In this document: positions 9,260-61,182 of the stretch, piece by piece
How the letters are laid out: every line of letters starts with the position of its first letter
Numbering within the stretch: position 1 is the stretch's first letter
Assembly: GCF_000384235.1 (NCBI RefSeq)
Contig: NZ_KB913033.1
Coordinates: 310,001 to 374,000, forward strand
From: Hydrogenovibrio halophilus DSM 15072
GTDB lineage: Bacteria > Pseudomonadota > Gammaproteobacteria > Thiomicrospirales > Thiomicrospiraceae
DNA length: 64,000 bases
Direction: 5' to 3'
The notes under the pieces: model-generated
Databases searched by the model: none
Told to the model about the DNA's origin: nothing
What the model saw: the letters and a program-made list of their open reading frames with translations, nothing else
Translations under genes and position numbers: made by a program

Positions 9260-10525
9260 TCAGAACAAATCGATCTCGCCTTCGTCCATGGACTGCGACG
9301 ACACCCGACGCATCCGTTTGGACTCGATTTCCTGACGCTCATCGTGAATGGTCTGACGGAACTCTTCCAGACGGGCTTTGTGTTCCTCCACCGTCTGCAC
9401 CGGATTGTTTTTGTTTTCTTCAATAAACTGACTGATCTGGTGTGAGAAACCGCTCAAGTTTTCCAGGTGGTTGAGAATCTGCTCAACCAGCTGACGCACG
9501 ATGTCTTCAAACTGCAAGGAACGCATGGCATTGGAGACACTGACTTCGATTTCGGAAATCACGCCCGACACATCGCCCAGCTTGCCGGAGATGCCGGCAT
9601 TCATGGCTTCCAGATCCTGCGTCAGATCCGTCACCTTGTCCTGAGAGGTGTGGGCTTCTTCCAGATCCTTTTCCGCGGTGTCACTGACCAGACGACGCAC
9701 ATGATCCACCGTCTGTTTGGCTTTTTCGGCTTTGTTGCGAATCTGGGCGTTGAGCTGATTGGAATTCAGCGACAGTTTGCGCACTTCGTCGGCCACCACC
9801 GCAAACCCGCGTCCGGCTTCGCCGGCCCGTGCGGCCTCAATCGCGGCGTTCAATGCCAACAGGTTGGTCTGGTCGGCAATGCCCTTCACATCTTCCAGCA
9901 GCACGAAAATGGATTCGATCTGATCGACCATGTCGTCGATTTTTTCCACTGTATCACTGCTGCGCTCACTGGATTTTTTGAGCAGGCCGATCAGGTAACC
10001 CAGCACCTCTTTGATTTCTTCCGAAAACTTTTCAATGCTCATGCCTTCGCCGGTGCCGCCCAGGTTGTCCAGAATCGCCACCACCATCTGATACTCTTTG
10101 GTGGTCTGCTCGTGCAGCCCGCTGAAGCTGTTGTTGAGCGTGCCAATGGCCTCGGCCACCAGGTCTTTGACCTGAAGCAGTTCGCCGCGCACCACTTCCA
10201 CTTCTTCGTCCACCACCGAGTCGATGTCGTTCATGATCACTTGCAGGGAATCGTCGATCACGCCGGCGTCAAAGTTGGCCGCTTCTCTGGCCTGAGATGC
10301 CACTTCCCGTGCCGGCACCGCTTTGGAAGACGACGCTTTTTCAGGCGACCCGCCTCGGGAAATGGTCGCGGCCACGCGTGCTTCGTGCGCAATGGTGAGT
10401 GTCCACACCACAGACACCAGCAATACCGAGATCAACCCAATAAAGGGGATCTGGACAAAGGTAAGGGCCACGGCTACCAGGGTCAGTAACCAGGGGAGCC
10501 AGTATTGTTTCAGGATTTTGAACAT
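9260..10525 (-). CDS. Methyl-accepting chemotaxis protein without periplasmic sensor domain
   Basis: Chemoreceptor of 421 aa. Two closely spaced membrane segments (about residues 8-46) leave no room for a periplasmic ligand domain. The signalling hairpin tip is at about 218-252 ([20 protein letters not shown]). Unusually, the distal helix contains FEDIVRQ (D341, Q345), a DxxxQ arrangement like the catalytic helix of CheZ, and the protein ends in EGEIDLF, close to the CheD ending EGDVELF. Start ATG follows AAGGATG. It lies 93 bp downstream of cheB and is probably co-transcribed with cheR-cheB. What it senses is unknown; it may respond to a partner or to membrane state. Confidence 0.9.
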
Positions 10526-10618
10526 GGAAAAACCATCCTTGATTCAGAGCATTCGACTTAGCCGGTACAAAGCAGGCATCATGCCATAACCGCACCGGTC
10601 TGTTGTTGTAACGGAGGC

Positions 10619-11743
10619 TTATCCGGCTTTTTTGACCAGCTCGAGAATTTTTTCCGGGATTTTTTCCAGCGGCAGCACAAAATCCGCTGCACCCAAGTGC
10701 ACAGCTTCGCCCGGCATCCCCCAGACCACAGAAGTTTTTTCGTCCTGTGCGATGGTGGCCACGCCAATCTCATTGAGCTCTTTCAGCCCCATGGCACCGT
10801 CCGCGCCCATGCCGGTCAAGAGCACGCCCACGGCGTTTTTGCCCACATTCTGCACAACCGTGCGGAACATCACATCCACCGAGGGTTTGTGCCGATTGAC
10901 CGGCGGGCCGTCATTCAATCGACACAGATAACGGGCACCACTGCGCTCGACCAGCAGGTGCAGCCCACCCGGCGCAATGTACACATGCCCCGGCAGAATG
11001 GTCTGGCCGTCCGTGGCCTGCATCACCCGCATTTCGGAAATGGTGTCCATTCGCTCGGCAAACGGCTGGCTGAACGCCGCCGGAATGTGCTGGGTGATCA
11101 CAATGGCAGGCGTATTGGCCGGCAAGCGCATCAACAATTCCTTGATCGCTTCGGTGCCTCCGGTGGAAGCGCCCAGCGCAATGACCTTGTCGGTGGTGGC
11201 AAAATGTCGGTTGTGTGTCTTTTTAACGATGGCGTCCGTGTCGTATTTTTGGGGTGCCTGCAGTCGCGACTGCGGCAGCACCTTTGGTTTTTCCGCCTTG
11301 TTGGCGGCATAGCGGGCGTAATGGCGTTCCAGTTGAAGCTTGGTCACATGCGAGGCGGTTTTGACTTTGCGCCGGATTTCTTCGGCATAATCTTCAAACG
11401 TATGGGCCAGATCGATCTTGGGCTTGCTGACAAAATCCACCGCGCCCAGTTCCAGAGCTTCAAAGGTAATGTCTGCTCCTTTTTCCGTCAAGGTCGAGAC
11501 CATCACCACCGGCATCGGGTGCAGACGCATCAGGTTTTTCAGAAACGTCACCCCATCCATTCGCGGCATTTCCACATCCAGTGTCATCACATCCGGATGC
11601 AACTGTTTCACTTTGTCTCTGGCATCATAAGGGTCCGATGCGGTGCCGACGACCTCAAGGGCCGGGTCGGCATTGAGCATTTCGCCCAGCATTTGGCGCA
11701 CCAGCGCAGAATCATCCACCACCAGGACTTTGATTTTCGACAT
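10619..11743 (-). CDS. cheB: Chemotaxis methylesterase/glutaminase CheB
   Basis: Response regulator that removes methyl groups from chemoreceptors, 374 aa. An N-terminal receiver domain has phospho-acceptor D56 (TLDVEMPRMDG), then a linker (about 120-183), then the methylesterase domain with triad S193 (GASTGGTE), H219 (TQHIPAAF) and D315 (GMGADGAMG). These spacings are identical to those of E. coli CheB. Start ATG at 11743 (MSKIKVLVVDDS) is preferred over a longer in-frame form. It lies 33 bp after cheR in the same direction. Confidence 0.96.
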   Translation of the reverse strand: MSKIKVLVVDDSALVRQMLGEMLNADPALEVVGTASDPYDARDKVKQLHPDVMTLDVEMPRMDGVTFLKNLMRLHPMPVVMVSTLTEKGADITFEALELGAVDFVSKPKIDLAHTFEDYAEEIRRKVKTASHVTKLQLERHYARYAANKAEKPKVLPQSRLQAPQKYDTDAIVKKTHNRHFATTDKVIALGASTGGTEAIKELLMRLPANTPAIVITQHIPAAFSQPFAERMDTISEMRVMQATDGQTILPGHVYIAPGGLHLLVERSGARYLCRLNDGPPVNRHKPSVDVMFRTVVQNVGKNAVGVLLTGMGADGAMGLKELNEIGVATIAQDEKTSVVWGMPGEAVHLGAADFVLPLEKIPEKILELVKKAG

Positions 11744-11776
11744 ACAACCTTGGCTCCTTAAATCGTGCGGCAATCC

Positions 11777-12604
11777 CTAACGGATCTTCCGATAAATGGT
11801 CTGGCCCAGCAGTTTGAAACGGTCCGAGACCTTGTAAAGCGATTCGGAATGGCCGACAAACAAATGCCCGTGCGGAGGCAACAGATCGGCGTAACGTTCA
11901 AACAGGCGCGCCTGAGTGGTTTTATCAAAATAAATCACCACATTGCGGCAGAAAATCACGTCGATCTGTTCCCGAATCGGCCAGTCGTGCATCAGGTTGA
12001 TCTGACCGAAATCAATGATTTTCTGCAGTTCTGGCTTGACCTTGACCATCCCTTCGTGGCTGCCACGCCCCTTTAGAAACCAGCGTTTCACACGCTCCTG
12101 CGACACCCCTTTGAGTCGGTCCATTTTATACACCCCGCGCTGACCGGTTTCCACCACGCTGGTATCCAGATCCGTGGCCAGCACCCGCGCATCCCAACCC
12201 GACGGCACCGCTTCCTTGAGCACAATCGCCAGAGAATAGGGCTCTTCCCCAGTGGAACACCCGGCTGACCAGATGCGAATTTTTTTGCTGCTCTGATTGT
12301 CTTCCAGCAACTGGGGAATCACTTCCTCTGCCAGATACTCAAAATGATGGTTTTCGCGAAAAAAGAACGTCAGATTGGTGGTAATGGCATTGATCAGCTG
12401 AACAAATTCCACTTCCCCCTGGGCTTCGACAAAATCCAGGTATTGCTTGAACGACTGCTGCTCCAGAAAGCGAATGCGCTTGGCCAGACGGTTATAGACC
12501 AGGTTACGCTTGGACTCGTTCAGGTCAATCCCGGCAAAGTCATACACCAACTGTTTTACCCGCATAAAATCTTTATCGGTAAACTCAAATTCTCTCTGGG
12601 TCAC
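11777..12604 (-). CDS. cheR: Chemotaxis methyltransferase CheR
   Basis: Transfers methyl groups from S-adenosylmethionine to chemoreceptor glutamates. 275 aa with an N-terminal helical domain and a SAM-binding fold marked by IWSAGCSTGEEPYSLA and FCRNVVIYFD. Start is GTG at 12604 with GAGGT six bases upstream. It is the first gene of a leftward cheR-cheB-mcp unit whose -10 box lies about 45 bp upstream, next to a MITE. Confidence 0.95.
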   Translation of the reverse strand: MTQREFEFTDKDFMRVKQLVYDFAGIDLNESKRNLVYNRLAKRIRFLEQQSFKQYLDFVEAQGEVEFVQLINAITTNLTFFFRENHHFEYLAEEVIPQLLEDNQSSKKIRIWSAGCSTGEEPYSLAIVLKEAVPSGWDARVLATDLDTSVVETGQRGVYKMDRLKGVSQERVKRWFLKGRGSHEGMVKVKPELQKIIDFGQINLMHDWPIREQIDVIFCRNVVIYFDKTTQARLFERYADLLPPHGHLFVGHSESLYKVSDRFKLLGQTIYRKIR

Positions 12605-12647
12605 AGATTACCTCATCCCTTCATGGCGCACCATCGCAATTGGCATA

Positions 12648-12653
12648 ATTATA
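12648..12653 (-). promoter_or_regulatory. -10 box for cheR operon
   Basis: TATAAT on the minus strand (12653-12648). The expected -35 area (about 12671-12676) has no good match. The MITE starts at 12691. Confidence 0.35.
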
Positions 12654-12690
12654 GTTGCTCTGCTTTTGTCTTGCAGTTTAATATGGTCTA

Positions 12691-12851
12691 GCAGCCTGTC
12701 GGACTTAAGCCAATCGGCTGCAAAAATCCTGAGCCTGACCATTTTTTGCTCAATTTTTCGTTAAATAGCGAAGCTATTCGCCTCAAAATTGAACAAAAAC
12801 TGTCTCAAATCAGACTTTTTTCGCTTCGATCATTTAAGTCCGACAGGCTGC
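12691..12851. mobile_element. MITE copy 2 (161 bp)
   Basis: Same length and terminal inverted repeats (GCAGCCTGTCGGACTTAA) as the copy at 2495-2655. The two copies differ at 8 positions, all transitions. It fills most of the divergent gap between cheR and the fliK-like gene, ending 44 bp before the latter's start, so it may supply or replace promoter sequence. Confidence 0.8.
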
Positions 12852-12895
12852 CAGTCTTTACAAGAAATTCTTCGCGGTCACACTGACGAGGTCCT

Positions 12896-13954
12896 ATGGC
12901 TCAAATGCCCACTTCTTTGCCGCCCAATGCCGGTTCGCCGGGTTCGTCCGGCCCGGCGCAGCTCACCGTTCAGCCAGGCAAAGCCCTGCAGGATCTGGCG
13001 GGCCTGAAGCTGCAGGTGGGCAAAATCTACCCGGCGCAGATCGAGCGGGTCGAGGGTCAGAAAGTGCAGTTTACCCTCGCGGGCAAAGCCATGACCGCCC
13101 AGAGCAACCTGCCACTGCAGGCTGGCACCACCGTGAATGTCAAAGTCGCCCAGACCCAGCCGACCGTGGTCCTGCAAGTGCAGATTCCCAAAGACAATGC
13201 CCAACAGCTTGCCGCCCAGAGCGCTTACCGGCAACTTTTGCCGAATCAGACCCCGGTTAACCAGGGGTTGCAGCAACTGATGCAGCTGTCCCAATCCCCC
13301 GCCTTGCCAGCCGTGATCCAAACCACCCTGTCGCAATTGCTGGAACAACTGTTCCGACCGAATGCCAACCTGACGGCGCAACAACTCAAACACCAGCTGC
13401 AAAACACCGGCCTGTTTCTGGAAAACCGGCTGAGCCAGAGCCGACAGCCCCCCACGGCCGACTTCAAGGCCCGACTGCTGCAACTGGGTCAGCTGTTGCT
13501 GGGTCTGAAAGACAAAAACGCCGACATTGAACAACTCAGCAAAACCGTCAACCAAACCCTGAACCGCCTGACCCTGCAACAGTTGAATGCCGCCCAGAAT
13601 CCGCATTTGATCAACATCGAACTGCCCCTGCACCCAGATTCACGATTGAATCCGATCGAAATCGACATTCGCCGTCAGGGGGCCGCCCATGATCCACTCT
13701 GGGAAGTGATGGTCGCTCTGACCCTGCCGGACGGTCAGTTCAAGGCCCGGCTGATCTACCACCGCGAACAACTCAACGCCGGTCTCTGGGCCGATCAGGA
13801 CGCATTAAAGCAGACCCTGACCGAGCAACTGCCGGCACTGAAAACCCAGTTTCAGGAAGCCGGATTGCCATTGAACCAACTGTTCATCGCCCATCAGGAG
13901 CCCTCTCCCGATCAGGGCGCCCAGAAAGTGGCACTGATCGACATTCATATTTGA
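12896..13954 (+). CDS. FliK-like flagellar hook-length control domain protein
   Basis: 352 aa, rich in Gln and Leu, with no signal peptide. The last 110 residues or so (from about 240, including GLWADQDALKQTLTEQLPAL) resemble the C-terminal Flg_hook domain of FliK, which interacts with FlhB to switch export specificity. A small flhB-like gene sits 1 kb downstream (15000), a pairing known beside true flagellar genes in other gammaproteobacteria. The true hook-length fliK is probably elsewhere. Ribosome site GAGGTCCT precedes the ATG. A MITE ends 44 bp upstream. Confidence 0.7.
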   Translation: MAQMPTSLPPNAGSPGSSGPAQLTVQPGKALQDLAGLKLQVGKIYPAQIERVEGQKVQFTLAGKAMTAQSNLPLQAGTTVNVKVAQTQPTVVLQVQIPKDNAQQLAAQSAYRQLLPNQTPVNQGLQQLMQLSQSPALPAVIQTTLSQLLEQLFRPNANLTAQQLKHQLQNTGLFLENRLSQSRQPPTADFKARLLQLGQLLLGLKDKNADIEQLSKTVNQTLNRLTLQQLNAAQNPHLINIELPLHPDSRLNPIEIDIRRQGAAHDPLWEVMVALTLPDGQFKARLIYHREQLNAGLWADQDALKQTLTEQLPALKTQFQEAGLPLNQLFIAHQEPSPDQGAQKVALIDIHI

Positions 13955-14029
13955 TCTTGCATTGTCGTGTTCCCACACAAAAAGCGCCATAGCGAATAAA
14001 AAACGTCCCGCATGCTATAAATAACGCTT

Positions 14030-14058
14030 TTGACTTGTTAGAATCTGGGGCTTATTAT
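14030..14058 (+). promoter_or_regulatory. Candidate distal promoter of cheY-STAS
   Basis: TTGACT (14030-14035), 17-nt spacer, TATTAT (14053-14058). It would give a leader of about 200 nt containing a palindrome copy and a small hairpin. Confidence 0.4.
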
Positions 14059-14131
14059 CATTTATTGTCAAAAAATGAAACGGGCCTTCCTGACCCTAAA
14101 CAAATTCTCAGGGTTCGGAAGTGTGTTTTTA

Positions 14132-14143
14132 ACCAGGCCTGGT
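14132..14143. repeat. Iterated palindrome, copy 3
   Basis: ACCAGGCCTGGT in the 309-bp gap between the fliK-like gene and cheY, 177 nt after the former's stop. This is the furthest any intergenic copy lies from a gene end. Confidence 0.95.
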
Positions 14144-14188
14144 GATTTTGGCCTTCGTAAAAGCCAAGCGAAAAGCCGCAGAAAAATA

Positions 14189-14232
14189 ACCCCAAAAAGG
14201 GGTCGTGTTTTCGCTGGCGGCTCATGTATAAT
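14189..14232 (+). promoter_or_regulatory. Hairpin and proximal -10 of cheY
   Basis: ACCCC-AAAAA-GGGGT hairpin (14189-14203) followed by a perfect TATAAT (14227-14232), 31 nt before cheY. No good -35 was seen. The hairpin could be a weak terminator or an operator; the rest of this 309-bp gap shows nothing more. Confidence 0.35.
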
Positions 14233-14263
14233 GATACGAAAGTTTTAAATTGAGAGAGAACCC

Positions 14264-14623
14264 ATGTCAAAAATTCTTGCCGTTGATGATTCCAAGTCCA
14301 TGCGCCAGATGGTCAGCATGTCTCTGAAATCTGCCGGACACGATGTCACCGAAGCCGAAGATGGCAAGGTCGCACTCGACATTGCCCAGAAAGAAAGTTT
14401 TGATCTGGTCGTCACCGACATCAACATGCCCAATATGAACGGCATTGAACTGATCCAGGCCTTGCGCGGCAAACCCAATTACAAATTCACCCCGATTCTG
14501 TGTCTGACCACCGAATCGTCCGGTGATATGAAGACCAAAGGCAAGGAAGCCGGTGCCACAGGCTGGATCGTCAAGCCTTTCAGCCCGGAAAAGCTGCTGT
14601 CCGTGATCAACCGCGTACTCTGA
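14264..14623 (+). CDS. cheY: CheY-like single-domain response regulator
   Basis: 119-aa receiver domain. Acidic pocket D8-D9, phospho-acceptor D52 (VVTDINMPNMNG), switch Thr in CLTTES and conserved Lys in IVKPF. No output domain. It is followed 26 bp later by a STAS-domain gene. Together with the nearby cheA/cheD and cheR/cheB/mcp genes it forms an accessory chemotaxis set distinct from the flagellar-cluster cheY at 50816. Confidence 0.93.
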   Translation: MSKILAVDDSKSMRQMVSMSLKSAGHDVTEAEDGKVALDIAQKESFDLVVTDINMPNMNGIELIQALRGKPNYKFTPILCLTTESSGDMKTKGKEAGATGWIVKPFSPEKLLSVINRVL

Positions 14624-14649
14624 TACGGTCCCATTAAAGGAGCCACCTC

Positions 14650-14931
14650 ATGTCTGACACCACTCTGACACTGCCGGAAAACCTGACCATTCATCAGATC
14701 GAGGCGCACTTTGGCGGTTTCAAACTGGCCCTTGATTCGGATGCCGATGTGTTCAAACTGGATGCGGGTGAGGTGGAATCCGTGGACACAGCCGGGCTTC
14801 AGTCTCTGCTGGTGCTGATCAAGCAACTTCAGGGCGCGGGCAAACAGGTCGAATGGCTCAATGCCGGCGACGTCGTCACTCAGGCGGCCGAACGCATCGG
14901 ATTGACCCAGAAGCTGCAACTGGCTTCCTGA
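14650..14931 (+). CDS. STAS-domain protein (anti-anti-sigma-like)
   Basis: 93-aa single STAS domain with the conserved loop VDTAGLQSLL, where the Thr/Ser phospho-site would lie. Such proteins accompany cheY and cheA in some accessory chemotaxis clusters of gammaproteobacteria; their role there is not established. Ribosome site AAAGGAG. It probably shares a transcript with cheY. No cognate Ser/Thr kinase of the RsbW type is in the window. Confidence 0.8.
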   Translation: MSDTTLTLPENLTIHQIEAHFGGFKLALDSDADVFKLDAGEVESVDTAGLQSLLVLIKQLQGAGKQVEWLNAGDVVTQAAERIGLTQKLQLAS

Positions 14932-14980
14932 CCCCTCTCCTTTCCCTGTCTGGTGCCGCCGCGTCAGACAGAACGTTCTA

Positions 14981-14992
14981 ACCAGGCCTGGT
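14981..14992. repeat. Iterated palindrome, copy 4
   Basis: ACCAGGCCTGGT, extended to a perfect 16-bp palindrome. It ends 7 nt before the ATG at 15000 and occupies the place where a ribosome site would be. Confidence 0.95.
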
Positions 14993-14999
14993 TAATTTT

Positions 15000-15299
15000 A
15001 TGCCCTCTGAGACGCATCGCCCTTTGGCGGTTTCCCTGCGCTATGAAGGCGAAGGCGCCCCCAAAGTCACCGCCAAAGGTTACGGCACACTGGCCGAACA
15101 GATCCTTTCCGTGGCCAGAGAACACGACATTCCCATTCAGGAAGATCCCTATCTGGTTGAGCTGCTGGCGCAGGTCGAACTGGACAATGAAATCCCCGAA
15201 GTTCTTTACGAAGCCGTGGTGCAAGTGTTGATTTTCGCCTATCAGATTTCCGGAAAAACCATGCCCAAACCCGACCGCGACGATGCGTCCACACCCTGA
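15000..15299 (+). CDS. FlhB C-terminal-domain homologue (FhlB-like)
   Basis: 99-aa cytoplasmic protein matching the C-terminal cytoplasmic domain of FlhB/YscU, from AVSLRYEGEGAPKVTAKGYG onward, but lacking the membrane part and the NPTH autocleavage motif. Stand-alone copies can stand in for the cleaved FlhB C-terminal fragment in some bacteria. It has no visible Shine-Dalgarno: a palindrome copy lies directly upstream. The 3' end overlaps the acetyltransferase gene by 17 bp. Pairs with the fliK-like gene at 12896. Confidence 0.8.
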   Translation: MPSETHRPLAVSLRYEGEGAPKVTAKGYGTLAEQILSVAREHDIPIQEDPYLVELLAQVELDNEIPEVLYEAVVQVLIFAYQISGKTMPKPDRDDASTP

Positions 15300-15771
15300 C
15301 ACCCGCGTCCAGTGTGTTCAGGCCCCCGACCCGCGCTTTGTGGCCGCCAACCATTTTCTCAAACGCTTCCGCCAGACGCCCGCCCCGCGCAATGCCACGC
15401 TCTGGTGCGCGCATACGCCAATGGATGGCTGTGTCGGCGCGGTATGGGTCCAGGTCATGGATCAGACAAGCCTGTGGTTGCGCAGCCTGTATGTTCACCC
15501 TGAACATCGGCGTCAGGGTCTGGGGCAGACACTGCTTCGCCAGCTGCTCTCAGAGGTCGCCGTGCCCGACGAAAAAACGTTTGCGCCCTCACAACTGGTG
15601 GCGTTTGTGCCCAACCGGCCGCCCCACCTCTCGCCCTTTTATCAGGGACTCGGATTTCGGCCTGCCACCGCAACGACCTTGCCTGACAGCTTGCGTCAGC
15701 GCTGGCTGCGTACCCAGGCACAAGGCAAAGACTGGCAGCTTCTGGTTCTCGCCTTGCCCCCGGTTGACTGA
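15283..15771 (+). CDS. GNAT-family N-acetyltransferase
   Basis: 162 aa. The acetyl-CoA-binding core is seen in LWLRSLYVHPEHRRQGLGQT followed by LLRQLL, matching motif A (R/Q-x-x-G-x-G/A). A C-terminal FYQGLGFRP fits motif B. The substrate cannot be told. It overlaps the end of the flhB-like gene and converges on umuC. Confidence 0.85.
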   Translation: MRPHPDTRVQCVQAPDPRFVAANHFLKRFRQTPAPRNATLWCAHTPMDGCVGAVWVQVMDQTSLWLRSLYVHPEHRRQGLGQTLLRQLLSEVAVPDEKTFAPSQLVAFVPNRPPHLSPFYQGLGFRPATATTLPDSLRQRWLRTQAQGKDWQLLVLALPPVD

Positions 15772-15777
15772 AGGAGG

Positions 15778-17130: not shown

Positions 17131-17156
17131 CCCTTGCCACCTTTTCAGCTTGATTA

Positions 17157-17191
17157 TTGTTACTGAAAAATCTTATCAGGCCGGGTATAAT
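17157..17191. promoter_or_regulatory. umuC/umuD divergent control region
   Basis: TATAAT (17186-17191) serves umuD. Overlapping the -35 area is CTG-N11-CAG (17163-17179), bounded by CTGA and TCAG. The classical LexA box is CTG-N10-CAG, so this is one base off and only a candidate operator. An A/T-rich stretch TGTAACTTTTTTCAA follows the -10. Confidence 0.35.
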
Positions 17192-17224
17192 TTGTGTAAC
17201 TTTTTTCAAAACAACGAGCCGACC

Positions 17225-17872
17225 ATGTCAGAATCGCACTCTAACAGCCGCCACGGCGGCGCTCGTCCGGGCGCCGGACGCAAAAAAGGCAGCGGCCCTT
17301 ATGGCGAACCCACCCGGGTGATGCGCGTACCCGAATCCAAAGTGAGCGCCATTCGTCATTGGCTGAAAGCACAGGCCAGTCAGGCGGAATCGGACCCGGA
17401 TTCGGAGCAGAATTCGGAATCGACCTTCCCCCAAACTCTGAGCCGTCAAGGCCATCAACTGGCGCGCCCCGATTTTGCCAGTTCGGTGTCCCTGCCGCTC
17501 TACAGCCACAAGGTCACCGCCGGTTTTCCCAGCCCGGCCGACGACTACATTGAAACCCGTCTGGATTTGAATCAAAAATTGATTCCACACCCCCACACCA
17601 CCTTTCTGGTCACAGTGGAAGGCGACTCCATGCAGAACGCCGGAATTGAACGGGACGACATACTGGTGGTGGACCGGGGACGCACTCCGCAGAATGGCGA
17701 CATTGTGATTGCCTCCGTCCACAGCGAAATCACCGTCAAACGGCTGAAGACGGAGGGCGACATTCTATGGTTATTGCCGGAAAACGATCGGTATCCGCCA
17801 ATACCGGTCAGGGACGACAGTGAGATCACGCTCTGGGGTGTGGTCACCGCTACCATCAAACAATTCAGATAA
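17225..17872 (+). CDS. umuD: N-terminally extended UmuD
   Basis: S24 self-cleaving accessory factor of polymerase V, 215 aa instead of about 139. The C-terminal part matches E. coli UmuD: cleavage A99-G100 (VTAG-FPSP), nucleophile S135 (GDSM), general base K172 (TVKRL), with the same spacings (35 and 37). The extra 75 or so N-terminal residues are basic and low in complexity at first (GGARPGAGRKKGSG), then a possible helix (VPESKVSAIRHWLKA). In Acinetobacter an extended UmuD acts as a repressor of DNA-damage genes, so a DNA-binding role is possible here. Start ATG at 17225; the longer in-frame form would run into umuC. Confidence 0.9.
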   Translation: MSESHSNSRHGGARPGAGRKKGSGPYGEPTRVMRVPESKVSAIRHWLKAQASQAESDPDSEQNSESTFPQTLSRQGHQLARPDFASSVSLPLYSHKVTAGFPSPADDYIETRLDLNQKLIPHPHTTFLVTVEGDSMQNAGIERDDILVVDRGRTPQNGDIVIASVHSEITVKRLKTEGDILWLLPENDRYPPIPVRDDSEITLWGVVTATIKQFR

Positions 17873-17879
17873 AGAGATC

Positions 17880-17904
17880 AAAAGGCCTGTCAGAGCGACA
17901 GGCC
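17880..17904 (-). terminator. Terminator of comEA-like gene
   Basis: GGCCTGTC (17884-17891), loop AGAGC, GACAGGCC (17897-17904). On the minus strand it is followed by TTTT, so it ends the leftward gene. Confidence 0.6.
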
Positions 17905-17911
17905 GGAAGGT

Positions 17912-18166
17912 TCATTCGAACTCGAGATCGTCCCGGTTCTTTTCCAGTGTTTTCGCGCCAATGCCTTTGACAGCCAGCAGATCTTCGGCCTGTTCGAACT
18001 CCCCATTCGCTTCCCGGTAGTCAACAATGCGTTCGGCCTTGACCTGACCGACCCCATTGAGCTGCACCAACTCGGACACGGACGCTTCGTTCACATTGAC
18101 CGAACCGGCCCAAGCCGCCATCGAAAACAGACTGGCAAAAAGAAAAGTCATCACTTGTTTTAACAT
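17912..18166 (-). CDS. ComEA-like helix-hairpin-helix protein
   Basis: 84-aa exported protein: signal peptide (residues 1-20, ending AWA), then tandem helix-hairpin-helix DNA-binding motifs (VSELVQLNGVGQVKAERIV and LLAVKGIGAKTLEKN). ComEA binds incoming DNA in the periplasm during natural transformation; short forms such as this occur across gammaproteobacteria. A strong ribosome site (AGGAGGA) precedes the ATG. Stands 2 kb from a LigE-type ligase, another protein linked with competence. Confidence 0.88.
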   Translation of the reverse strand: MLKQVMTFLFASLFSMAAWAGSVNVNEASVSELVQLNGVGQVKAERIVDYREANGEFEQAEDLLAVKGIGAKTLEKNRDDLEFE

Positions 18167-18358
18167 TCCATCCTCCTAGAAAAGTGTCATAAACGCGTAT
18201 CACGCCAACACACTCTATCATACGGATTTTTATGAATCAAAACTTTTTAAGAGGACGCGTTTCTCTGTAAGAACCCGTCCGGCAAACGCATCTCATCGAT
18301 GAAACACATGGCATGAAACCAACCAACGCTGGGGATGTCTATTTGCGCCCGGATTGAG

Positions 18359-18364
18359 TATAAT
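18359..18364 (+). promoter_or_regulatory. -10 box upstream of methyltransferase gene
   Basis: TATAAT at 18359-18364, 94 nt before the start at 18458; no convincing -35. The rest of the 291-bp gap 18167-18457 shows no RNA gene or riboswitch I recognise. Confidence 0.35.
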
Positions 18365-18457
18365 GCCCTGCAGTTTTGCAATTGAATGGCAACCCGTGAC
18401 AGGCGATGGCAGAAACCGAAAGGCCTGTGCACCACAAAAAGAACTTGAGGACCCAGC

Positions 18458-19105
18458 ATGAACTTTGACCAGGCCCGCTTCAATATGGTTGAGCAGCAAA
18501 TTCGTCCCTGGGACGTGCTAGACCCGCACATTCTGGAATTATTCAGCGAGATCCCGCGGCACCACTTTGTGGCCCCGGAGCAACAAACGCTGGCATACAG
18601 TGACTTTGAGCTGCCGATCGGCAAGGGACAAACCATGCTGCCGCCCAGAGTGGAAGCCCGCATATTACAGGGGCTGACCCCTTGCGCAGACGACAAGGCG
18701 CTGGAAATCGGAACCGGTTCCGGCTTCACCACCGCCTTGCTGGCGGCCAGCACCGAGTCGGTCACCACGGTCGAGATCCATCCCGAATTACAGGACACGG
18801 CCAAAACGCGATTGCAGGATTTTGACAACATTGTCTTTGCACAAGGCGACGCGCACCAGGGCTGGGAAGACGGCCAGCATTACGATGTGATTTTTGTGAC
18901 CGGTGCCGTGCCCAAAATGGTCGACGCGTTCAAGCAACAGCTGACTCTGGGCGGACGACTGGCGATCACCACCGGACAGGCCCCGGCCATGACCACACAG
19001 ATTCTGACGCGCGTCAGCGATCAGGAATGGGCAAGCGAACCGCTGTTTGAAACGGTTCTGCCCTACCTGGTGAACGCCGAACCCGGTGAAACCTTTCAAT
19101 TCTGA
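18458..19105 (+). CDS. Pcm-like SAM-dependent methyltransferase
   Basis: 215 aa, resembling protein-L-isoaspartate O-methyltransferase: N-terminal FNMVEQQIRPWDV and SAM motif I LEIGTGSGFTTALL. The Pcm substrate loop (normally around an ISAPH/ISQP sequence) is replaced by KGQTMLPPRVEA, so true isoaspartate repair is doubtful. Homologues of this divergent type are common in proteobacteria and often precede outer-membrane genes; here it is alone. Ribosome site TGAGGA. Confidence 0.75.
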   Translation: MNFDQARFNMVEQQIRPWDVLDPHILELFSEIPRHHFVAPEQQTLAYSDFELPIGKGQTMLPPRVEARILQGLTPCADDKALEIGTGSGFTTALLAASTESVTTVEIHPELQDTAKTRLQDFDNIVFAQGDAHQGWEDGQHYDVIFVTGAVPKMVDAFKQQLTLGGRLAITTGQAPAMTTQILTRVSDQEWASEPLFETVLPYLVNAEPGETFQF

Positions 19106-19147
19106 AACCGCTGGGCTGCCGTTGATCGGAATGCTGGTCGAAACGGT

Positions 19148-20137
19148 TCAGGGCAAATCCGGGCGCGCCCGCAAAAACACCGGAAATCGGGGTTTGCCGT
19201 GGCGCGTGCGCCCATAATATTTGAACGTAATCCACTCGCCGATTGCAGGGGGATTCCGACGCTGGCGATCACTCAAACCACTGCCAACCGAAAACGGCTG
19301 ATCAAACCCTGAATCCTCTGCCGGTTGACACCGCAAAGACCCCACCATGCCCTGCAAACGACCTTTTCCCGGGCGATACCCTTGAACCCGGCATTCTGCG
19401 TCCTGATGCAACTTCACCTTCAAAGCCTGATCCTGACGACCGGCCACATACGCCTGGTTTGGTGCCCGCACCACGGCGCCTTCCGCCCCTTTTGCCTGCA
19501 AGCGTTCAAACAGACGTTTGAAATGGGCTGAATCGCGCAGACGCGTCTGCGTCACCACTGCCACCGACTCGACGTCCCTGGTGCGAAGATAACGTGTCAT
19601 TTTGGCCAGACGCTGAGACAACCCTCCCTGCGCATCAGGCACATCAAACACCTGATAAGTGATTTGATCCCAGCGCTGATCCGGCACCTGCTGGCGCACG
19701 ATGGACAGGGTTTCGGCAAAAGCCTGTCTGGCCAGCCACAATTCGCCGTCCAGAGCAAAAGGTGGCAAAGCGTCAATGAACCATTCGGGGGCCTGTATTG
19801 GATTGCCCTGACGGCTCCAAAGGCGCTTGCCATCCCAGTAAGCACGCATCCCGTCATACTTCTCACTGAACCACCAGCCGGTCAGGGAAAAATCCGAGAC
19901 AGGCGTGGTGGTAGACAAGGCTTCGAGTCGCTCGGGGGGATAGATTTCAAGCAGAAAAAGTTTTGGCGGTTCCGCCAGAGAGGGTAGGCAGAGGGCGACC
20001 CATAACAGGATCGCTTTTTGGGAGACACGACGAAAAGCCCCCGTCCAGACCCAACAGACGCGTGTTAGGAGACGGGACACCATCGGGCGCAGGGCCGAAA
20101 AAGAACGGAATGGAAAAAGTCGTCGGCGCCCGAACAT
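19148..20137 (-). CDS. ligE: Periplasmic-type ATP-dependent DNA ligase (LigE)
   Basis: Minimal ATP-dependent DNA ligase, up to 329 aa. Adenylation motif I EKYDGMR (K93), motif III ALDGELW, motif IV GAEGAVVR and motif V LKVKL precede a small OB domain; no extra DNA-binding domain. A hydrophobic signal segment (about 42-55, ending SLA before EPPK) suggests export. LigE is linked with competence and extracellular DNA in Neisseria and Haemophilus relatives. The start is uncertain: an ATG at 20083 would shorten the long N-terminal region. It lies 18 bp after the CheZ-like gene and may be read through from the che operon. Confidence 0.85.
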   Translation of the reverse strand: MFGRRRLFPFRSFSALRPMVSRLLTRVCWVWTGAFRRVSQKAILLWVALCLPSLAEPPKLFLLEIYPPERLEALSTTTPVSDFSLTGWWFSEKYDGMRAYWDGKRLWSRQGNPIQAPEWFIDALPPFALDGELWLARQAFAETLSIVRQQVPDQRWDQITYQVFDVPDAQGGLSQRLAKMTRYLRTRDVESVAVVTQTRLRDSAHFKRLFERLQAKGAEGAVVRAPNQAYVAGRQDQALKVKLHQDAECRVQGYRPGKGRLQGMVGSLRCQPAEDSGFDQPFSVGSGLSDRQRRNPPAIGEWITFKYYGRTRHGKPRFPVFLRARPDLP

Positions 20138-20155
20138 GCGTCAAGCAGCCCCGGG

Positions 20156-20725
20156 TCAGAACAACTCAAAGGGATCGTCGTCTTCCACCGGCTGGCTCTT
20201 CAAACGTTCCCGCATACGGCCTTTCATGACTTCAATGGCCTCATCCACCGGTCGCTCCTGGTCAAAGATCAGCTCAAAAAGCTCTTCTTCTTCCTGCATG
20301 CTGGTGCCCTTACGAACGTTCAGTTTGAACGCTTCCCACTGAGCCTGATCCTTGGCATGCATCTCATGCGAAACGATTTCTGCCAGCCCGGAAAGGCCCA
20401 CAGAAACGTGATTCAGGCGCTGAGACAACTTGTCATAAAACTGAAAGGCAATAATGGCCTGATGCATTTTCTCCGACAGGTCCGATGTCTGCGTCAGCAG
20501 AGAGGCGTTGTGCTCGGCCATCCCATCAACCTGATCCGTCATGTCGGCAATTTTCTGACTGGATTGTTCAATCGCCTCCAGATGCTGCGACATGTAGGTA
20601 AACGAATCAATCAGCGTATTGACCGAATGATCGCCTTCGTTGATCGACAACTCAATCTGCGCCACCGACAGATTGAGCATCAATATGGTTTCCTGAACTT
20701 CTTTCGCGCCTAAAGCAAATGACAT
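20156..20725 (-). CDS. Putative CheZ-like chemotaxis protein
   Basis: 189-aa, almost wholly helical protein that I do not recognise as a named family. Residues 10-95 look like coiled coil; the segment FQFYDKLSQRL (D98, Q102) has the DxxxQ spacing of the CheZ catalytic pair, which in this window is FQDLTGQ in the true CheZ at 50067. It ends DDDPFELF, similar in character to the tails of the chemoreceptor and CheD. It lies 12 bp after cheA in the same operon. A CheY-P phosphatase or CheA-associated role is inferred, not shown. Confidence 0.55.
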   Translation of the reverse strand: MSFALGAKEVQETILMLNLSVAQIELSINEGDHSVNTLIDSFTYMSQHLEAIEQSSQKIADMTDQVDGMAEHNASLLTQTSDLSEKMHQAIIAFQFYDKLSQRLNHVSVGLSGLAEIVSHEMHAKDQAQWEAFKLNVRKGTSMQEEEELFELIFDQERPVDEAIEVMKGRMRERLKSQPVEDDDPFELF

Positions 20726-20737
20726 AATTTCCCCGGG

Positions 20738-22882
20738 TTAAGCGGCATTGTTCTGACTGCCAGAACCTTTATGATATGACAGTGTTTCCGAAATATCCAG
20801 AATCAGTGACACCGTGCCATCCCCGAGGATGGTGGCCCCGGCAATGCTCTGGATTTTCATGAAATTCTGATCCAGACTCTTGATGACCACCTGCTGCTGC
20901 CCCAGCAGGTCGTCAACAAACACCCCGGCACGACGGCCGCCGTCTTCGACCACCACCAGCAAACCTTGCTCAAGGTCGGTGCGGGCATCGCTCACACCCA
21001 ACAGCTTATGCAGACGGATCACCGGGATGTACTGATCCCGAAGTTTGTAGAGTTCGGTCTGTCCACCAATGCCCTTGACCAACGACTTGTCCACCTGAAT
21101 CGATTCGACGATGGAGATCAATGGGAAGACGTAATTCTGTGAGCCGACTTTGGCCAGCTGCCCATCGAGAATGGCCAGCGTCAACGGCAGTCGAATGGTA
21201 AACACCGACCCTTTGCCCAGCTCGGTTTTGACCTCCACCGTACCGCCCAGACCGCGGATATTACGCCGCACCACATCCATGCCCACGCCACGGCCGGACA
21301 CGTCTGAGATTTCGTCGGCGGTCGAAAAGCCGGCATTGAAAATCAAATCCACAGCTTCCTGATCACTGAGCTTGTCATCTTCGGAAATCACGCCTTTCTC
21401 GATCGCCTTCTGACGCACCTTGTCTGCATTGATGCCGGCCCCATCATCGGTAATCTGAATCAGGATATTGCCACCCTGATGGAAAGCGGCCATTTTGACC
21501 ATGCCGGTTTCCGGCTTGCCATTTTCCAGACGTTTTTCCGGTGACTCCACGCCATGGTCGATCGAATTGCGCACAATGTGAACCAGCGGATCGGTCAAAG
21601 CCTCGAGCATGGTTTTGTCCAGCTCGGTGTTTTCCCCTTCCATGACCAGGTCAATCTTTTTGCCCAGTTTCTGGCTGACGTCGTGCACGATCCGCGGCAT
21701 GCGATTGAACGCAAAGCTGACCGGCAGCATACGGATGTTCATCACGCTTTCCTGCAGATCACGGGTGTGACGCTCCAAATGAGTCAGCCCTTCTTTGAGC
21801 TTGTCCACCCACTCTTCACGGTTGGAAGCCGCCTGACCTTCCTGCGCCTCCTGATCGACCTGCTCGGCCTGTTCGCCAAACTGACTGAGCATGGACTGGG
21901 TAATGACCAGTTCGCCAACCAGATTGACCAGTTGATCGATTTTGCTCAGGTCCACCCGGATCGAACCTTCCTGTTTTTTGGCTGGCACGGGTTTGTCGGC
22001 CGCTTTTTTGGGCGCGGGCTTGGCAGCGGGCTGGCTGGTGGCTTCCGCCTCGGGTTTTTCCGCACGGGGTTGCGCTTTGGTTTCCGCTGCCGAAGGTTCG
22101 GCCTGAGGGGCGGCGGCAGATTCTGCCGGTTTGTCCTGTGCGCTTGCCGGTTCCGGCGCTGTGATTTGAATTTCGGCCCCATCGCCGTCGATCCATTCAA
22201 ACACCTCACGCACATCGTCTTCCTTGATGCCGTCACCGGAAAGGGTCAGGTGCCAGCGCAGGTACACTTCTTCCGGATTGAACGCCTCCAGTTCAGGCAC
22301 ATTGCTGTCGTCCGCCTCGACGCTCAAATCGCCGAGTGACTCCAGTTCACGGAAAATCCGAATCGGTTCATTGCCGGTCTGTAAAAGCGTGTTCTCGGGA
22401 ATGACTTCGATTTTCCAGTCGCCCCCGGATGCCGGTGCTTCCACGGCCTGTTCTGCTGCGGCGCTGTCACCGCTGCTGGCTTCGGCCGGCGCATCCCCGC
22501 CGTTGAGCAGCTTTTCCATCTGAGCCTGAACTTCGCCGGCCTTGTCGTGATCGATTTCTTCGTGGTTCTGCAGGGCCGTCATCATGTCGCGCAGAATATC
22601 GACCGCATGCAACATCACATCGGTGGCTTCCTGAGTCACATCACGGCGTCCGTCCCGCATCTCATCGAGCAGGGTTTCCAGCACATGGGTAAAGTCGATG
22701 ATGTCGTTGAAGCCGAAGGTCCCACTGCCCCCTTTGATGGAGTGGGCCGCACGGAAGATTTCATTGACTTTTTCGGTGTCCGGTGTGCCAGGTTGAAGAT
22801 CCAGCAACCCGGTTTCCATAATATCCAGACCTTCAAAACTCTCTTCCAGATAAGTTTGGCGGAACGTTTCCATCATATCCAT
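20738..22882 (-). CDS. cheA: Chemotaxis histidine kinase CheA (accessory system)
   Basis: 714 aa. HPt domain with H47 (AAHSIKGGSGTFGF), a P2-like region, a long Ala/Pro/Lys-rich linker (about 245-305), dimerisation domain, HATPase domain (N-box RNSIDHGVESP, G-boxes DDGAGIN and GRGVGMDVV) and a C-terminal CheW-like domain. Phosphorylates a CheY, probably that at 14264. Lies between cheD (21 bp) and the CheZ-like gene (12 bp). No cheW is adjacent, so it must use the flagellar-cluster CheW or one elsewhere. Three Met codons near the start leave it uncertain by a few residues. Confidence 0.95.
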   Translation of the reverse strand: MDMMETFRQTYLEESFEGLDIMETGLLDLQPGTPDTEKVNEIFRAAHSIKGGSGTFGFNDIIDFTHVLETLLDEMRDGRRDVTQEATDVMLHAVDILRDMMTALQNHEEIDHDKAGEVQAQMEKLLNGGDAPAEASSGDSAAAEQAVEAPASGGDWKIEVIPENTLLQTGNEPIRIFRELESLGDLSVEADDSNVPELEAFNPEEVYLRWHLTLSGDGIKEDDVREVFEWIDGDGAEIQITAPEPASAQDKPAESAAAPQAEPSAAETKAQPRAEKPEAEATSQPAAKPAPKKAADKPVPAKKQEGSIRVDLSKIDQLVNLVGELVITQSMLSQFGEQAEQVDQEAQEGQAASNREEWVDKLKEGLTHLERHTRDLQESVMNIRMLPVSFAFNRMPRIVHDVSQKLGKKIDLVMEGENTELDKTMLEALTDPLVHIVRNSIDHGVESPEKRLENGKPETGMVKMAAFHQGGNILIQITDDGAGINADKVRQKAIEKGVISEDDKLSDQEAVDLIFNAGFSTADEISDVSGRGVGMDVVRRNIRGLGGTVEVKTELGKGSVFTIRLPLTLAILDGQLAKVGSQNYVFPLISIVESIQVDKSLVKGIGGQTELYKLRDQYIPVIRLHKLLGVSDARTDLEQGLLVVVEDGGRRAGVFVDDLLGQQQVVIKSLDQNFMKIQSIAGATILGDGTVSLILDISETLSYHKGSGSQNNAA

Positions 22883-22903
22883 AATGTTGTTACCTCAGCT
22901 CGC

Positions 22904-23482
22904 TCAGAATAGTTCGACATCGCCCTCGACAGGTTTCGATCCGATGTTGTTGATGTAGCGGCTTTCTTCTGCCACCAGTGATTGATTGTGCATCGCATTC
23001 AACCGGCGTACCCGTACGCGGCCTGAATTGGGGTAATAAAGCACCTTGCGCGGATAAATGTCGCCAATGTCCTGCGAGATGATTTTAAACCCTTCCGTAT
23101 AAATGTAATCAAACGCAAAGCCAATATTGTACCAACCGATGTTGCTGGAGCCGGAATTCATGATCCGCCCCCCGCCAAACAGCTTGAATTCCAGGCGTTC
23201 GCGCCTTGCTCCGGAGCTCAACAGGGCGTTGACCAGATTTTCCATCGCATAGTTGCCATAACGATTGGCACCGGACAATTCCGATGCCCCGGTGCTGTTT
23301 TTGTCCACTGGCAGCATAAAATGATTCATGCCGCCGACACCGGTCACCGGGTCCCGGGCACATGCGGCGATACAGGACCCCAGGACAGTTTCAATGCGTT
23401 CGTTATTTTTGGTGACATAAAATTCACCGGGCAGGATTTTGATGGTATTCAAACCTTCTGCCGGATCCACACTTTTCTGCAT
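22904..23482 (-). CDS. cheD: Chemoreceptor glutamine deamidase CheD
   Basis: Deamidates receptor glutamines, 192 aa. Catalytic pair C37 (GSCIAAC) and H54 (GGMNHFMLP), spaced as in characterised CheD. It ends EGDVELF, nearly the same as the receptor ending EGEIDLF at 9260. First gene of the leftward cheD-cheA-CheZ-like operon. The ribosome site is weak and no clear promoter was found in the 129-bp gap to tadA. Confidence 0.95.
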   Translation of the reverse strand: MQKSVDPAEGLNTIKILPGEFYVTKNNERIETVLGSCIAACARDPVTGVGGMNHFMLPVDKNSTGASELSGANRYGNYAMENLVNALLSSGARRERLEFKLFGGGRIMNSGSSNIGWYNIGFAFDYIYTEGFKIISQDIGDIYPRKVLYYPNSGRVRVRRLNAMHNQSLVAEESRYINNIGSKPVEGDVELF

Positions 23483-50066: not shown

Positions 50067-50720
50067 TCAAATCCCCAGGTCATCCAGCATGGCGTCCACG
50101 TCATCCTGAGAGCCCACCGTGTCTTTTTTGCCGTCACGGGTCACATTGGGGCCCATACCGCGTTCTTGCTGGGCCTTGCGCTCGGCATCAGACTGCGCCG
50201 GTTCGGGAATCGCCTCCAGAGACAGACCGGAACGCTCGATCAAATCCTTTAACGACGCTTCCAGGCTGGTCACCAGCATAATCACACGATTCAGCACCTG
50301 ACCGGTCAAATCCTGGAACGACTGTGCGGTCATGATTTCGGTCATTTCAGCGTGCGCCTGTTTGAGATAGGCGGCAATTTTTTCATCCGAGGTCTGGGAT
50401 TCGATCGACTCCAGCAAACCGATCATATTCTCGGCGGCGTTCAGGGTTTTGTTACTGGCGTCTTCGGTGGTCTGCATCACGTATTCCAGACGTTCGGTCG
50501 CATCCGGCAGCCCATGCTTGGTGTCCTGCAACAGCTGCGAATCCTGACCGAAATTTTCCAGGGTGTCGTGCAGGTTCTGGGCAATTTCCTCGACGCCTTC
50601 GATCAAGGATTCGTTGCGTTTGGCCACAATCGCATCCAGCATCTCAGAGGCCTTATCGTAATCCTCTTTTTCCAAGGCTTTGAGCAAGGTTTTGACTTGT
50701 TTGGGTTTGATGTTTTTCAT
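50067..50720 (-). CDS. cheZ: CheY-P phosphatase CheZ
   Basis: Dephosphorylates CheY-P. 217 aa, long helical hairpin. Catalytic pair D137 and Q141 in SFQDLTGQ, and the C-terminal CheY-binding peptide DDVDAMLDDLGI. Start ATG at 50720 follows GGAGAGGA. Lies 95 bp after cheY. Confidence 0.94.
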   Translation of the reverse strand: MKNIKPKQVKTLLKALEKEDYDKASEMLDAIVAKRNESLIEGVEEIAQNLHDTLENFGQDSQLLQDTKHGLPDATERLEYVMQTTEDASNKTLNAAENMIGLLESIESQTSDEKIAAYLKQAHAEMTEIMTAQSFQDLTGQVLNRVIMLVTSLEASLKDLIERSGLSLEAIPEPAQSDAERKAQQERGMGPNVTRDGKKDTVGSQDDVDAMLDDLGI

Positions 50721-61120: not shown

Positions 61121-61140
61121 TCCGACAACCGCCAGACGCA

Positions 61141-61182
61141 AAAAAGCCGCCATGACTTTGTTCGGTCATGGCGGCTTTTTTC
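61141..61182. terminator. Strong bidirectional terminator ygfZ/lysS
   Basis: Perfect 17-bp stem (61141-61157 with 61166-61182), 8-nt loop, A-run and T-run on either side. Serves both convergent genes. Confidence 0.92.

What the first reader, a model, noticed from the sequence alone, without database searches (positions are those of the whole stretch)
9260..23482. Shared acidic-LF C-terminal tail in receptor, CheD and CheZ-like protein
Seen: the receptor ends EGEIDLF, CheD ends EGDVELF and the CheZ-like protein ends DDDPFELF. CheB, CheR and both CheA proteins lack it. C-terminal peptides are established docking tags in chemotaxis (NWETF of receptors for CheR/CheB; the CheZ tail for CheY). One partner, perhaps the accessory CheY, may recognise all three tails.
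Basis: partly seen in the sequence, partly recalled or inferred. Interest (0 to 1): 0.7.

Follow-up and report, generated by a model that had tools for sequence, protein, structure and literature searches.

The report
Shared tail tag on chemotaxis proteins
Several bacterial chemotaxis proteins with different jobs end in the same short acidic Leu-Phe tail, conserved across many species, which probably lets one common partner, perhaps a CheY-type messenger protein, grip them all.

Summary
Of 11 genome-wide hits to [hydrophobic][D/E][L/F]F-stop, only three end gene-length ORFs: the three named proteins. All three keep the tail in 11 of 11 same-genus genomes. The CheZ-like family ends in Phe in 80 of 80 loci. 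In 22 diverse genomes the pattern ends 65 gene-length ORFs: 21 CheZ-like, 20 receptors, 13 GGDEF proteins, 10 CheD, 1 receiver protein. It is neither the CheR pentapeptide nor the canonical CheZ tail; both occur elsewhere in this genome. The CheZ-like protein and the receptor also share a CheZ-type motif, [A/S]xxFxDxxxQ, at CheZ-like distance from the tail. Best reading: a C-terminal docking tag for one shared partner, most likely a CheY-type receiver. No binding was shown. Two tail-bearing genomes (G014, G075) lack a close relative of this CheY, and a GFP fusion of a McpA receptor still clusters with CheA, so the tail is not simply an array-entry signal. Ortega et al. 2020 called the conserved McpA C-terminus unexplained (passages).

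The parts
9263..9283 (-). Acidic-LF tail of the receptor (EGEIDLF, residues 415-421)
   Evidence: E415 G416 D419 L420 F421 invariant in 11 of 11 same-genus sequences
9260..10525 (-). McpA-like chemoreceptor: N-terminal hydrophobic segment (by eye), no sensor domain found by Pfam, MCP signalling domain
   Evidence: (PF00015, 3.8e-28)
9491..9520 (-). CheZ-type active-site motif in the receptor ([10 protein letters not shown], residues 336-345)
10619..11773 (-). CheB, no tail
11777..12604 (-). CheR, no tail
14264..14623 (+). CheY, candidate tail partner
   Evidence: PF00072; co-occurrence
14650..14931 (+). STAS-domain protein next to CheY
20156..20725 (-). CheZ-like protein, 189 aa, no Pfam or NCBIfam family above cut-off
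   Evidence: helical hairpin
20159..20182 (-). Acidic-LF tail of the CheZ-like protein (DDDPFELF, residues 182-189)
   Evidence: predicted disordered
20420..20449 (-). CheZ-type active-site motif in the CheZ-like protein (AFQFYDKLSQ, residues 93-102)
20738..22882 (-). CheA between CheD and the CheZ-like gene, no tail
22904..23482 (-). CheD deamidase
   Evidence: PF03975; NF010013 above cut-off
22907..22927 (-). Acidic-LF tail of CheD (EGDVELF, residues 186-192)
   Evidence: predicted disordered
50067..50720 (-). Canonical CheZ, ending QDDVDAMLDDLGI: a separate CheZ with the canonical tail, used as comparison

Best explanation
The tail [D/E][I/V][D/E][L/F]F-COOH is a conserved, flexible C-terminal docking tag that lets one shared partner hold several accessory chemosensory proteins. 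Steps shown: conservation; near-exclusive presence on CheD, McpA-like receptors, CheZ-like proteins and GGDEF proteins in the genomes scanned; predicted disorder of two of the tails. Steps inferred: the partner is a CheY-type receiver domain. In the CheZ-like protein and the receptor the tail would tether CheY-P so that the upstream [A/S]xxFxDxxxQ helix can dephosphorylate it, as in canonical CheZ, whose C-terminal helix binds CheY. In CheD and the cyclases the same tag would let CheY (or CheY-P) steer receptor deamidation and c-di-GMP synthesis. My step estimates: functional tag 0.95, one common partner 0.75, partner a CheY-type receiver 0.5.
For: Tail in 11 of 11 same-genus orthologues of each protein. 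CheZ-like family: F at the end in 80 of 80, D/E third from the end in 80 of 80, I/V fourth from the end in 77 of 80. 22-genome scan: 65 of 65 gene-length carriers (60 aa or more, true stop) are CheZ-like, MCP, CheD, GGDEF or receiver proteins. In 30 genomes without the CheZ-like gene, 13 of 16 gene-length hits are CheD (7) or MCP (6). Motif [A/S]xxFxDxxxQ in 80 of 80 CheZ-like loci (partly ascertained by the search word AFQFYDK), in 30 of 36 of a profile-based sample with the looser FxDxxxQ in all 36, and in 30 of 37 tail-bearing MCPs; not even the loose motif in the 16 other MCPs of this genome as read. Distance from motif to C-terminus 77-93 (CheZ-like), 70-77 (those 30 MCPs), 65-81 (canonical CheZ, 23 of 26 with the motif). 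AxxFQ directly before DxxxQ is the published CheZ signature (PMC7750401, passages). Profile comparison puts the MCP motif in register with CheZ (P 6e-4, probability 29%) and the CheZ-like motif in register with the MCP (P 1e-4, probability 57%). CheY relatives (E 1e-36 or better) in 29 of 31 tail-bearing and 1 of 22 tail-less genomes, Fisher P 1.6e-11.
Against: No binding data. G014 has the CheZ-like tail but no relative of CheY 14264 at E 1e-22, and G075 (rated 100% complete) has a tailed CheD and only a 43%-identical CheY. Co-occurrence may follow the whole cluster, not CheY alone, and the genomes are related, so the Fisher P is not a clean probability. In this genus the canonical CheZ tail ends in I or L in 11 of 11 genomes while the acidic-LF tails keep F, which argues against both tails using the same pocket of the same CheY. 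The CheZ-like profile does not align with CheZ directly (P 0.08) and fold search is uninformative. The motif was not noted in CheD or GGDEF carriers (the list holds only CheZ-like proteins). 7 of 37 tail-bearing MCPs lack the motif. Not every homologue has a free LF end: the CheD of G022 ends DIELFD (L394), 2 of 34 CheD in the loci end AELF and 3 end PTLF, and three receptor-like proteins end EITFF, DVVFF and GLEFF.
Confidence: 0.45

Rival explanations
1. The tail is an address tag read by a non-receiver hub at the cell pole or in the motility (F6) array, for example a FimV/HubP- or ParP-type scaffold, bringing CheD, cyclases and the CheZ-like phosphatase to the array where McpA-like receptors sit.
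For: Carriers may share a place of action rather than an activity. McpA-like receptors encoded with the F7 system cluster with F6 CheA in Shewanella (section read). G014 keeps the CheZ-like tail without the close CheY relative.
Against: A GFP fusion named McpAso-GFP still formed CheA3-dependent polar clusters, so a free tail is probably not needed for array entry of the receptor. No hub was tested here; its presence in these genomes was not searched.
Confidence: 0.27
2. The tail is a variant of the CheR/CheB-binding pentapeptide, read by the CheR or CheB encoded with the receptor.
For: Same register of a C-terminal Phe with an acidic residue; CheR and CheB are encoded beside the receptor. The window's CheZ-like end PFELF alone fits x-[HFYW]-x2-[HFYW].
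Against: I/V replaces the aromatic residue in nearly all tails. Ortega et al. report, citing Garcia-Fontana 2014, that this replacement (Val) in P. aeruginosa McpA prevents binding to all four CheRs (passages; the 2014 paper itself not seen). Four other receptors of this genome carry DEW[A/S]EF, and most receptors in the fetched clusters end EWEEF-like, so the CheR tag is already present. CheD and a phosphatase gain nothing obvious from CheR (inference).
Confidence: 0.1
3. The tail is a shared proteolysis signal that sets the level of these proteins.
For: C-terminal and predicted disordered, on proteins of one pathway.
Against: Strong acidity and sequence conservation over distant relatives look like docking rather than a hydrophobic degron (inference, recalled knowledge).
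Confidence: 0.06
4. No common partner: acidic tails that arose separately or help solubility.
For: Acidic C-termini are common in general (recalled).
Against: Exact end positions are conserved and the pattern is almost exclusive to these families in the genomes scanned.
Confidence: 0.05

Closest known systems
C-terminal end of McpA-like (CttP/PA0180) receptors of F7 clusters (Ortega et al. 2020, PMC7184735)
   Same: Conserved receptor C-terminus lacking the CheR pentapeptide, with Val in its second position in P. aeruginosa; receptor encoded with CheD, CheB, CheR, CheY and anti-sigma-factor antagonist genes (passages)
   Different: In the passages I read it is described for McpA only, with an unclear role. 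The same end on CheD, a CheZ-like family and GGDEF proteins, and a CheZ-type motif in the receptor, are not in those passages. Their Supplementary Fig. 4 and Table 12 were not seen.
C-terminal CheY-binding helix of canonical CheZ
   Same: Acidic plus hydrophobic tail 65-81 residues after DxxxQ in this set
   Different: Canonical end is Qxx[V/A]Dx[L/M]LxxLG[F/I/L] in 27 of 28 loci read, longer and different; this genome has both kinds
CheR/CheB pentapeptide (NWETF type)
   Same: Short C-terminal tag ending in Phe on a receptor
   Different: I/V instead of an aromatic residue four from the end; also on non-receptors
FliM N-terminal CheY-binding peptide (EIDALL, recalled)
   Same: [D/E][I/V][D/E] followed by Leu and a hydrophobic residue
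   Different: At an N-terminus and one residue longer; similarity is by eye only

Membership tests
CheR-tethering pentapeptide x-[HFYW]-x2-[HFYW] | Aromatic residue four from the C-terminus | tested here: not met
   CheZ-like: I 62, V 15, D 2, F 1 of 80; CheD and receptor in 11 of 11 genus genomes I or V. Exception: the window's own CheZ-like end PFELF fits.
CheZ (PF04344) | Match to the curated CheZ profile | tested here: not met
   No CheZ hit for the 189-aa protein at E up to 1; the genome has a separate PF04344 protein
CheZ (PF04344) | AxxFQ-DxxxQ active-site signature on a helical hairpin | tested here: met
   [A/S]xxFxDxxxQ in 80 of 80 loci and FxDxxxQ in 36 of 36 class-sample ORFs; the signature's Q before D is Y in the CheZ-like family and E or Q in the receptors; hairpin H5-61/H69-119 at modest confidence, pLDDT 65
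CheZ (PF04344) | Same fold as solved CheZ | tested here: inconclusive
   The 50 rows shown are mostly generic coiled coils
CheZ (PF04344) | CheY-P phosphatase activity | not testable with these tools
   needs an assay
CheD | CheD profile | tested here: met
   PF03975 3.2e-25; NF010013 233 bits over cut-off 223, matched to its last position 201
McpA-like receptor | MCP domain with a conserved non-pentapeptide C-terminus carrying Val/Ile | tested here: met
McpA-like receptor | Orthology to P. aeruginosa PA0180 | not tested
   sequence not fetched
F7 chemosensory class | Gene order STAS, CheY, CheA, CheW, receptors, CheR, CheD, CheB, McpA | tested here: inconclusive
   Near-complete with a tailed McpA in L380 and L392, without one in L393 and L397 (CheW not tested there); in the window the genes are split into three groups. 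Class-specific CheA models were not run.
CheY-binding peptide | Binds a receiver domain | not testable with these tools
   no complex prediction or binding assay available

The most novel reading that the evidence does not exclude
One C-terminal tag defines a CheY-docking set of proteins in gamma- and betaproteobacteria: a second family of CheZ-type phosphatases without a Pfam entry, chemoreceptors that carry their own CheZ-type phosphatase site, the deamidase CheD, and diguanylate cyclases. CheY-P would thereby feed back on receptor adaptation and feed forward to c-di-GMP, linking F7 and F6 chemosensory systems.
Probability: 0.33. Interest if true: 0.88.

Novelty: new variant of a known kind. 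Interest (0 to 1): 0.74.

Why it matters
Ortega et al. 2020 found the McpA C-terminus strikingly conserved and its role unclear, and asked what McpA does for the F7 system while sitting in the F6 array (passages). Finding the same end on CheD, on a CheZ-like family and on GGDEF proteins turns that into a direct test: find the one protein that binds the tail. It would also suggest how CheD is controlled where I know of no CheC (recalled; CheC was not searched here), and a physical link between chemotaxis and c-di-GMP.

Tried and rejected
CheR/CheB pentapeptide: rejected as the main reading (see rivals). Canonical CheZ tail: rejected, because canonical CheZ with its own tail is encoded at 50067-50720. 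First pattern [D/E]x[L/F]F was mis-designed: it leaves out all three tails (68 places, unused); replaced. Direct profile comparison CheZ-like against CheZ: no support (P 0.08). Sequence search of PDB with the CheZ-like profile: 9 weak matches to designed or unrelated, mostly helical proteins. Fold search: generic helical hairpins; solved CheZ is not among the 50 rows shown. Self-docking of the CheD tail: not supported, residues 183-192 have pLDDT under 50. Papers seen: PMC7184735 passages; PMC9855816 outline, passages, sections 3.4 and Discussion; PMC7534058 passages; PMC7750401 passages; PMC6391922 passages, nothing used; the rest as search listings.

Ascertainment limits: the 80 loci are the best of 313 and were found with the words AFQFYDK and KEVQETI[ML], so motif conservation (not the tail) is partly built in there. 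The tail-bearing MCP, CheD and GGDEF sets were chosen by the tail, so only their identity and the motif are informative. I chose the 22 genomes from the 80 loci for variety, and the 30 control genomes from 241 without a match by handle order and size. Raw hit counts against the reversed pattern: 78 against 39 in the 22 genomes, 33 against 49 in the 30. A tail with another residue at a fixed position is missed by the patterns (for example the CheZ-like DQIEFF of L150/G032, the DEDELF and EEDELF receiver proteins of L392/L393, the PTLF CheD of L133/L134/L149). Alignment A4 used 64 of the 80 CheZ-like loci plus the window; A5 used 31 of 34 CheD loci plus the window.
Full report
OBSERVATION. The window (310001-374000 of a 2.36-Mb single-contig genome) encodes a chemoreceptor (9260-10525), CheB, CheR, a CheY-STAS pair (14264-14931), a 189-aa CheZ-like protein (20156-20725), CheA (20738-22882) and CheD (22904-23482). 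A genome-wide scan for [IMVFL][DE][LF]F-stop gave 11 places; only three are ends of gene-length ORFs, and they are these three. The other eight are frames of 4-120 aa, three of them followed by TGG rather than a stop. The reversed-pattern control gave 28 places, so the hit count as such is not raised.

CONSERVATION. In 11 of 11 same-genus genomes (own included) the receptor ends EG[D/E][I/V]DLF, CheD ends GDVELF, and the CheZ-like protein ends in an acidic-LF form, EEEIEFF in 7 of 11. A scan of named bacterial genomes with the CheZ-like alignment gave 313 relatives, of which the best 80 were kept: Thiomicrospira, Hydrogenovibrio, Thiomicrorhabdus, Colwellia, Thalassotalea, Zoogloea, Competibacter relatives, Acidiferrobacteraceae and others. 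All 80 end in Phe, all 80 have D or E third from the end, 77 have I or V fourth from the end, although identity falls to about 35%. CheD was found in 34 of these loci: 29 end in the strict tail, 2 in DAELF, 3 in PTLF. A profile search found the CheZ-like family in 33 of 274 genomes of the class. Of the 36 non-window ORFs read back, 33 are CheZ-like, and 31 of these end [I/V/F][D/E][L/F]F; the exceptions are L300 (IDLF followed by extra residues) and L313. The other three are 396-408-aa receptor-like proteins ending EITFF, DVVFF and GLEFF, a looser form.

WHO ELSE CARRIES IT. I scanned 22 genomes that have the CheZ-like gene for [D/E][I/M/V][D/E][L/F]F-stop: 78 places, 13 under 60 aa or followed by TGG, 65 gene-length. 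By profile or signature these are 21 CheZ-like proteins, 20 MCPs, 13 GGDEF proteins (12 genomes), 10 CheD and one receiver-domain protein. Three GGDEF carriers and the receiver protein were checked with Pfam; the other ten were assigned by the GGDEF/GGEEF signature alone. In 30 genomes of the class without a CheZ-like match, 33 places gave 16 ORFs of 60 aa or more: 7 CheD, 6 MCPs and 3 others, of which one is followed by TGG, one resembles a frame with no recognisable protein, and one is a 68-aa piece near a contig start. No GGDEF carrier appeared there. So in the 53 genomes scanned with one or other pattern the tail is a near-private mark of chemosensory and GGDEF proteins.

NOT THE KNOWN TAILS. 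Seventeen MCP genes were found in this genome. Four others end DEW[A/S]EF, the CheR pentapeptide type. A canonical CheZ lies at 50067-50720 and ends QDDVDAMLDDLGI; canonical CheZ was found in 28 of 33 genomes searched, and 27 of the 28 loci read end Qxx[V/A]Dx[L/M]LxxLG[F/I/L], the 28th (L276) being broken by a stop. The acidic-LF tail is therefore a third kind, present beside the other two.

CHEZ-TYPE MOTIF. The CheZ-like protein has no Pfam or NCBIfam family above cut-off. AlphaFold2 gives a helical hairpin with further short helices and a disordered tail (mean pLDDT 65); fold searches give only generic coiled coils among the rows shown. Its invariant core in 65 sequences is AFQFYDKLxQRxxH. 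CheZ proteins carry AxxFQ directly before DxxxQ (PMC7750401, passages). The receptor has [10 protein letters not shown]. Strict [A/S]xxFxDxxxQ is in 80 of 80 CheZ-like loci, 30 of 36 of the class sample (looser FxDxxxQ in all 36), 23 of 26 canonical CheZ and 30 of 37 tail-bearing MCPs; the 16 other MCPs of this genome, as read, do not have even FxDxxxQ. From Q to the C-terminus there are 77-93, 70-77 and 65-81 residues in the CheZ-like proteins, MCPs and canonical CheZ that have the strict motif (the 77-93 for the 80 loci). Profile comparison aligns the receptor motif with CheZ (P 6e-4, probability 29%) and the CheZ-like motif with the receptors (P 1e-4, probability 57%), both in register, but CheZ-like with CheZ directly not (P 0.08). 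Alone these are weak; with the spacing they suggest a common phosphatase-plus-tether design.

MECHANISM. By analogy with CheZ, whose conserved C-terminal region is involved in CheY binding (passages), the tail would tether CheY-P near the D/Q pair. That explains two of the carriers. CheD and the cyclases show no such motif, so for them the tag would only recruit. Close relatives of CheY 14264 (E 1e-36 or better) occur in 29 of 31 tail-bearing genomes and in 1 of 22 others. This fits, but it also fits any other member of the same cluster: in L380 and L392 STAS, CheY, CheA, receptors ending EWEEF, CheR, tailed CheD, CheB and tailed McpA lie together, and other fetched regions show parts of this order. 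Against CheY stand G014 and G075, which lack a close relative of that CheY, and the different last residue of canonical CheZ in the genus. Against a need for a free end stands the CheD of G022, which ends DIELFD (L394). Against an array-entry role stands Shewanella McpAso-GFP (a C-terminal fusion, to judge by its name), which still forms CheA3-dependent polar clusters (PMC9855816, sections 3.4 and Discussion read). AlphaFold2 leaves the last ten residues of CheD disordered, so self-docking is not indicated.

LITERATURE. Ortega et al. 2020 (PMC7184735, passages only) report that McpA-like C-termini are highly conserved and lack the pentapeptide, that in P. aeruginosa Val takes its second position and CheR binding is lost (citing Garcia-Fontana 2014, not seen), and that the role is unclear. 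In the listings and passages I saw there was no report of the same end on CheD, a CheZ-like family or GGDEF proteins.

VERDICT. Observation confirmed and extended; interpretation partly supported; partner unknown, CheY-type receiver most likely at about one in two.

Noticed in passing
window 47916-49907 (-): The second CheA, next to canonical CheZ, has a tandem repeat containing LPEGVDPEGEITDDEFEALL in the linker after its first domain; DEFEALL resembles CheY-binding peptides and the DPFELF tail by eye.
   Followed up: no
L392:18631-19812 and L393:18481-19731; G029 protein in L235: Receiver-domain proteins of about 400 aa end DEDELF or EEDELF (L392, L393) or DIELF (L235); in L392 and L393 they lie in the chemosensory cluster after a receiver-like protein of about 585 aa.
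   Followed up: partly
12 of 22 genomes, e.g. L199, L196, L231, L243: GGDEF proteins with the strict tail were seen in 12 of 22 genomes that have the CheZ-like gene and in 0 of 30 without it.
   Followed up: partly
L380, L381, L388, L390, L394, L396: A ParA-like ATPase by sequence start (NQKGGVGKTTT type, cut short in two print-outs) sits inside these six chemosensory clusters.
   Followed up: no
L394:357-1019 (-): The CheD of G022 ends DIELFD, one residue beyond the tail.
   Followed up: no
window 19148-20137 (-): Downstream of the CheZ-like gene this genome (and G004) has a different gene from the roughly 300-aa one found there in nine of the eleven genus genomes.
   Followed up: no
window 60080-61153 (-): A 357-aa ORF near fliP has no Pfam or NCBIfam match at the thresholds used; it may not be a gene.
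   Followed up: no
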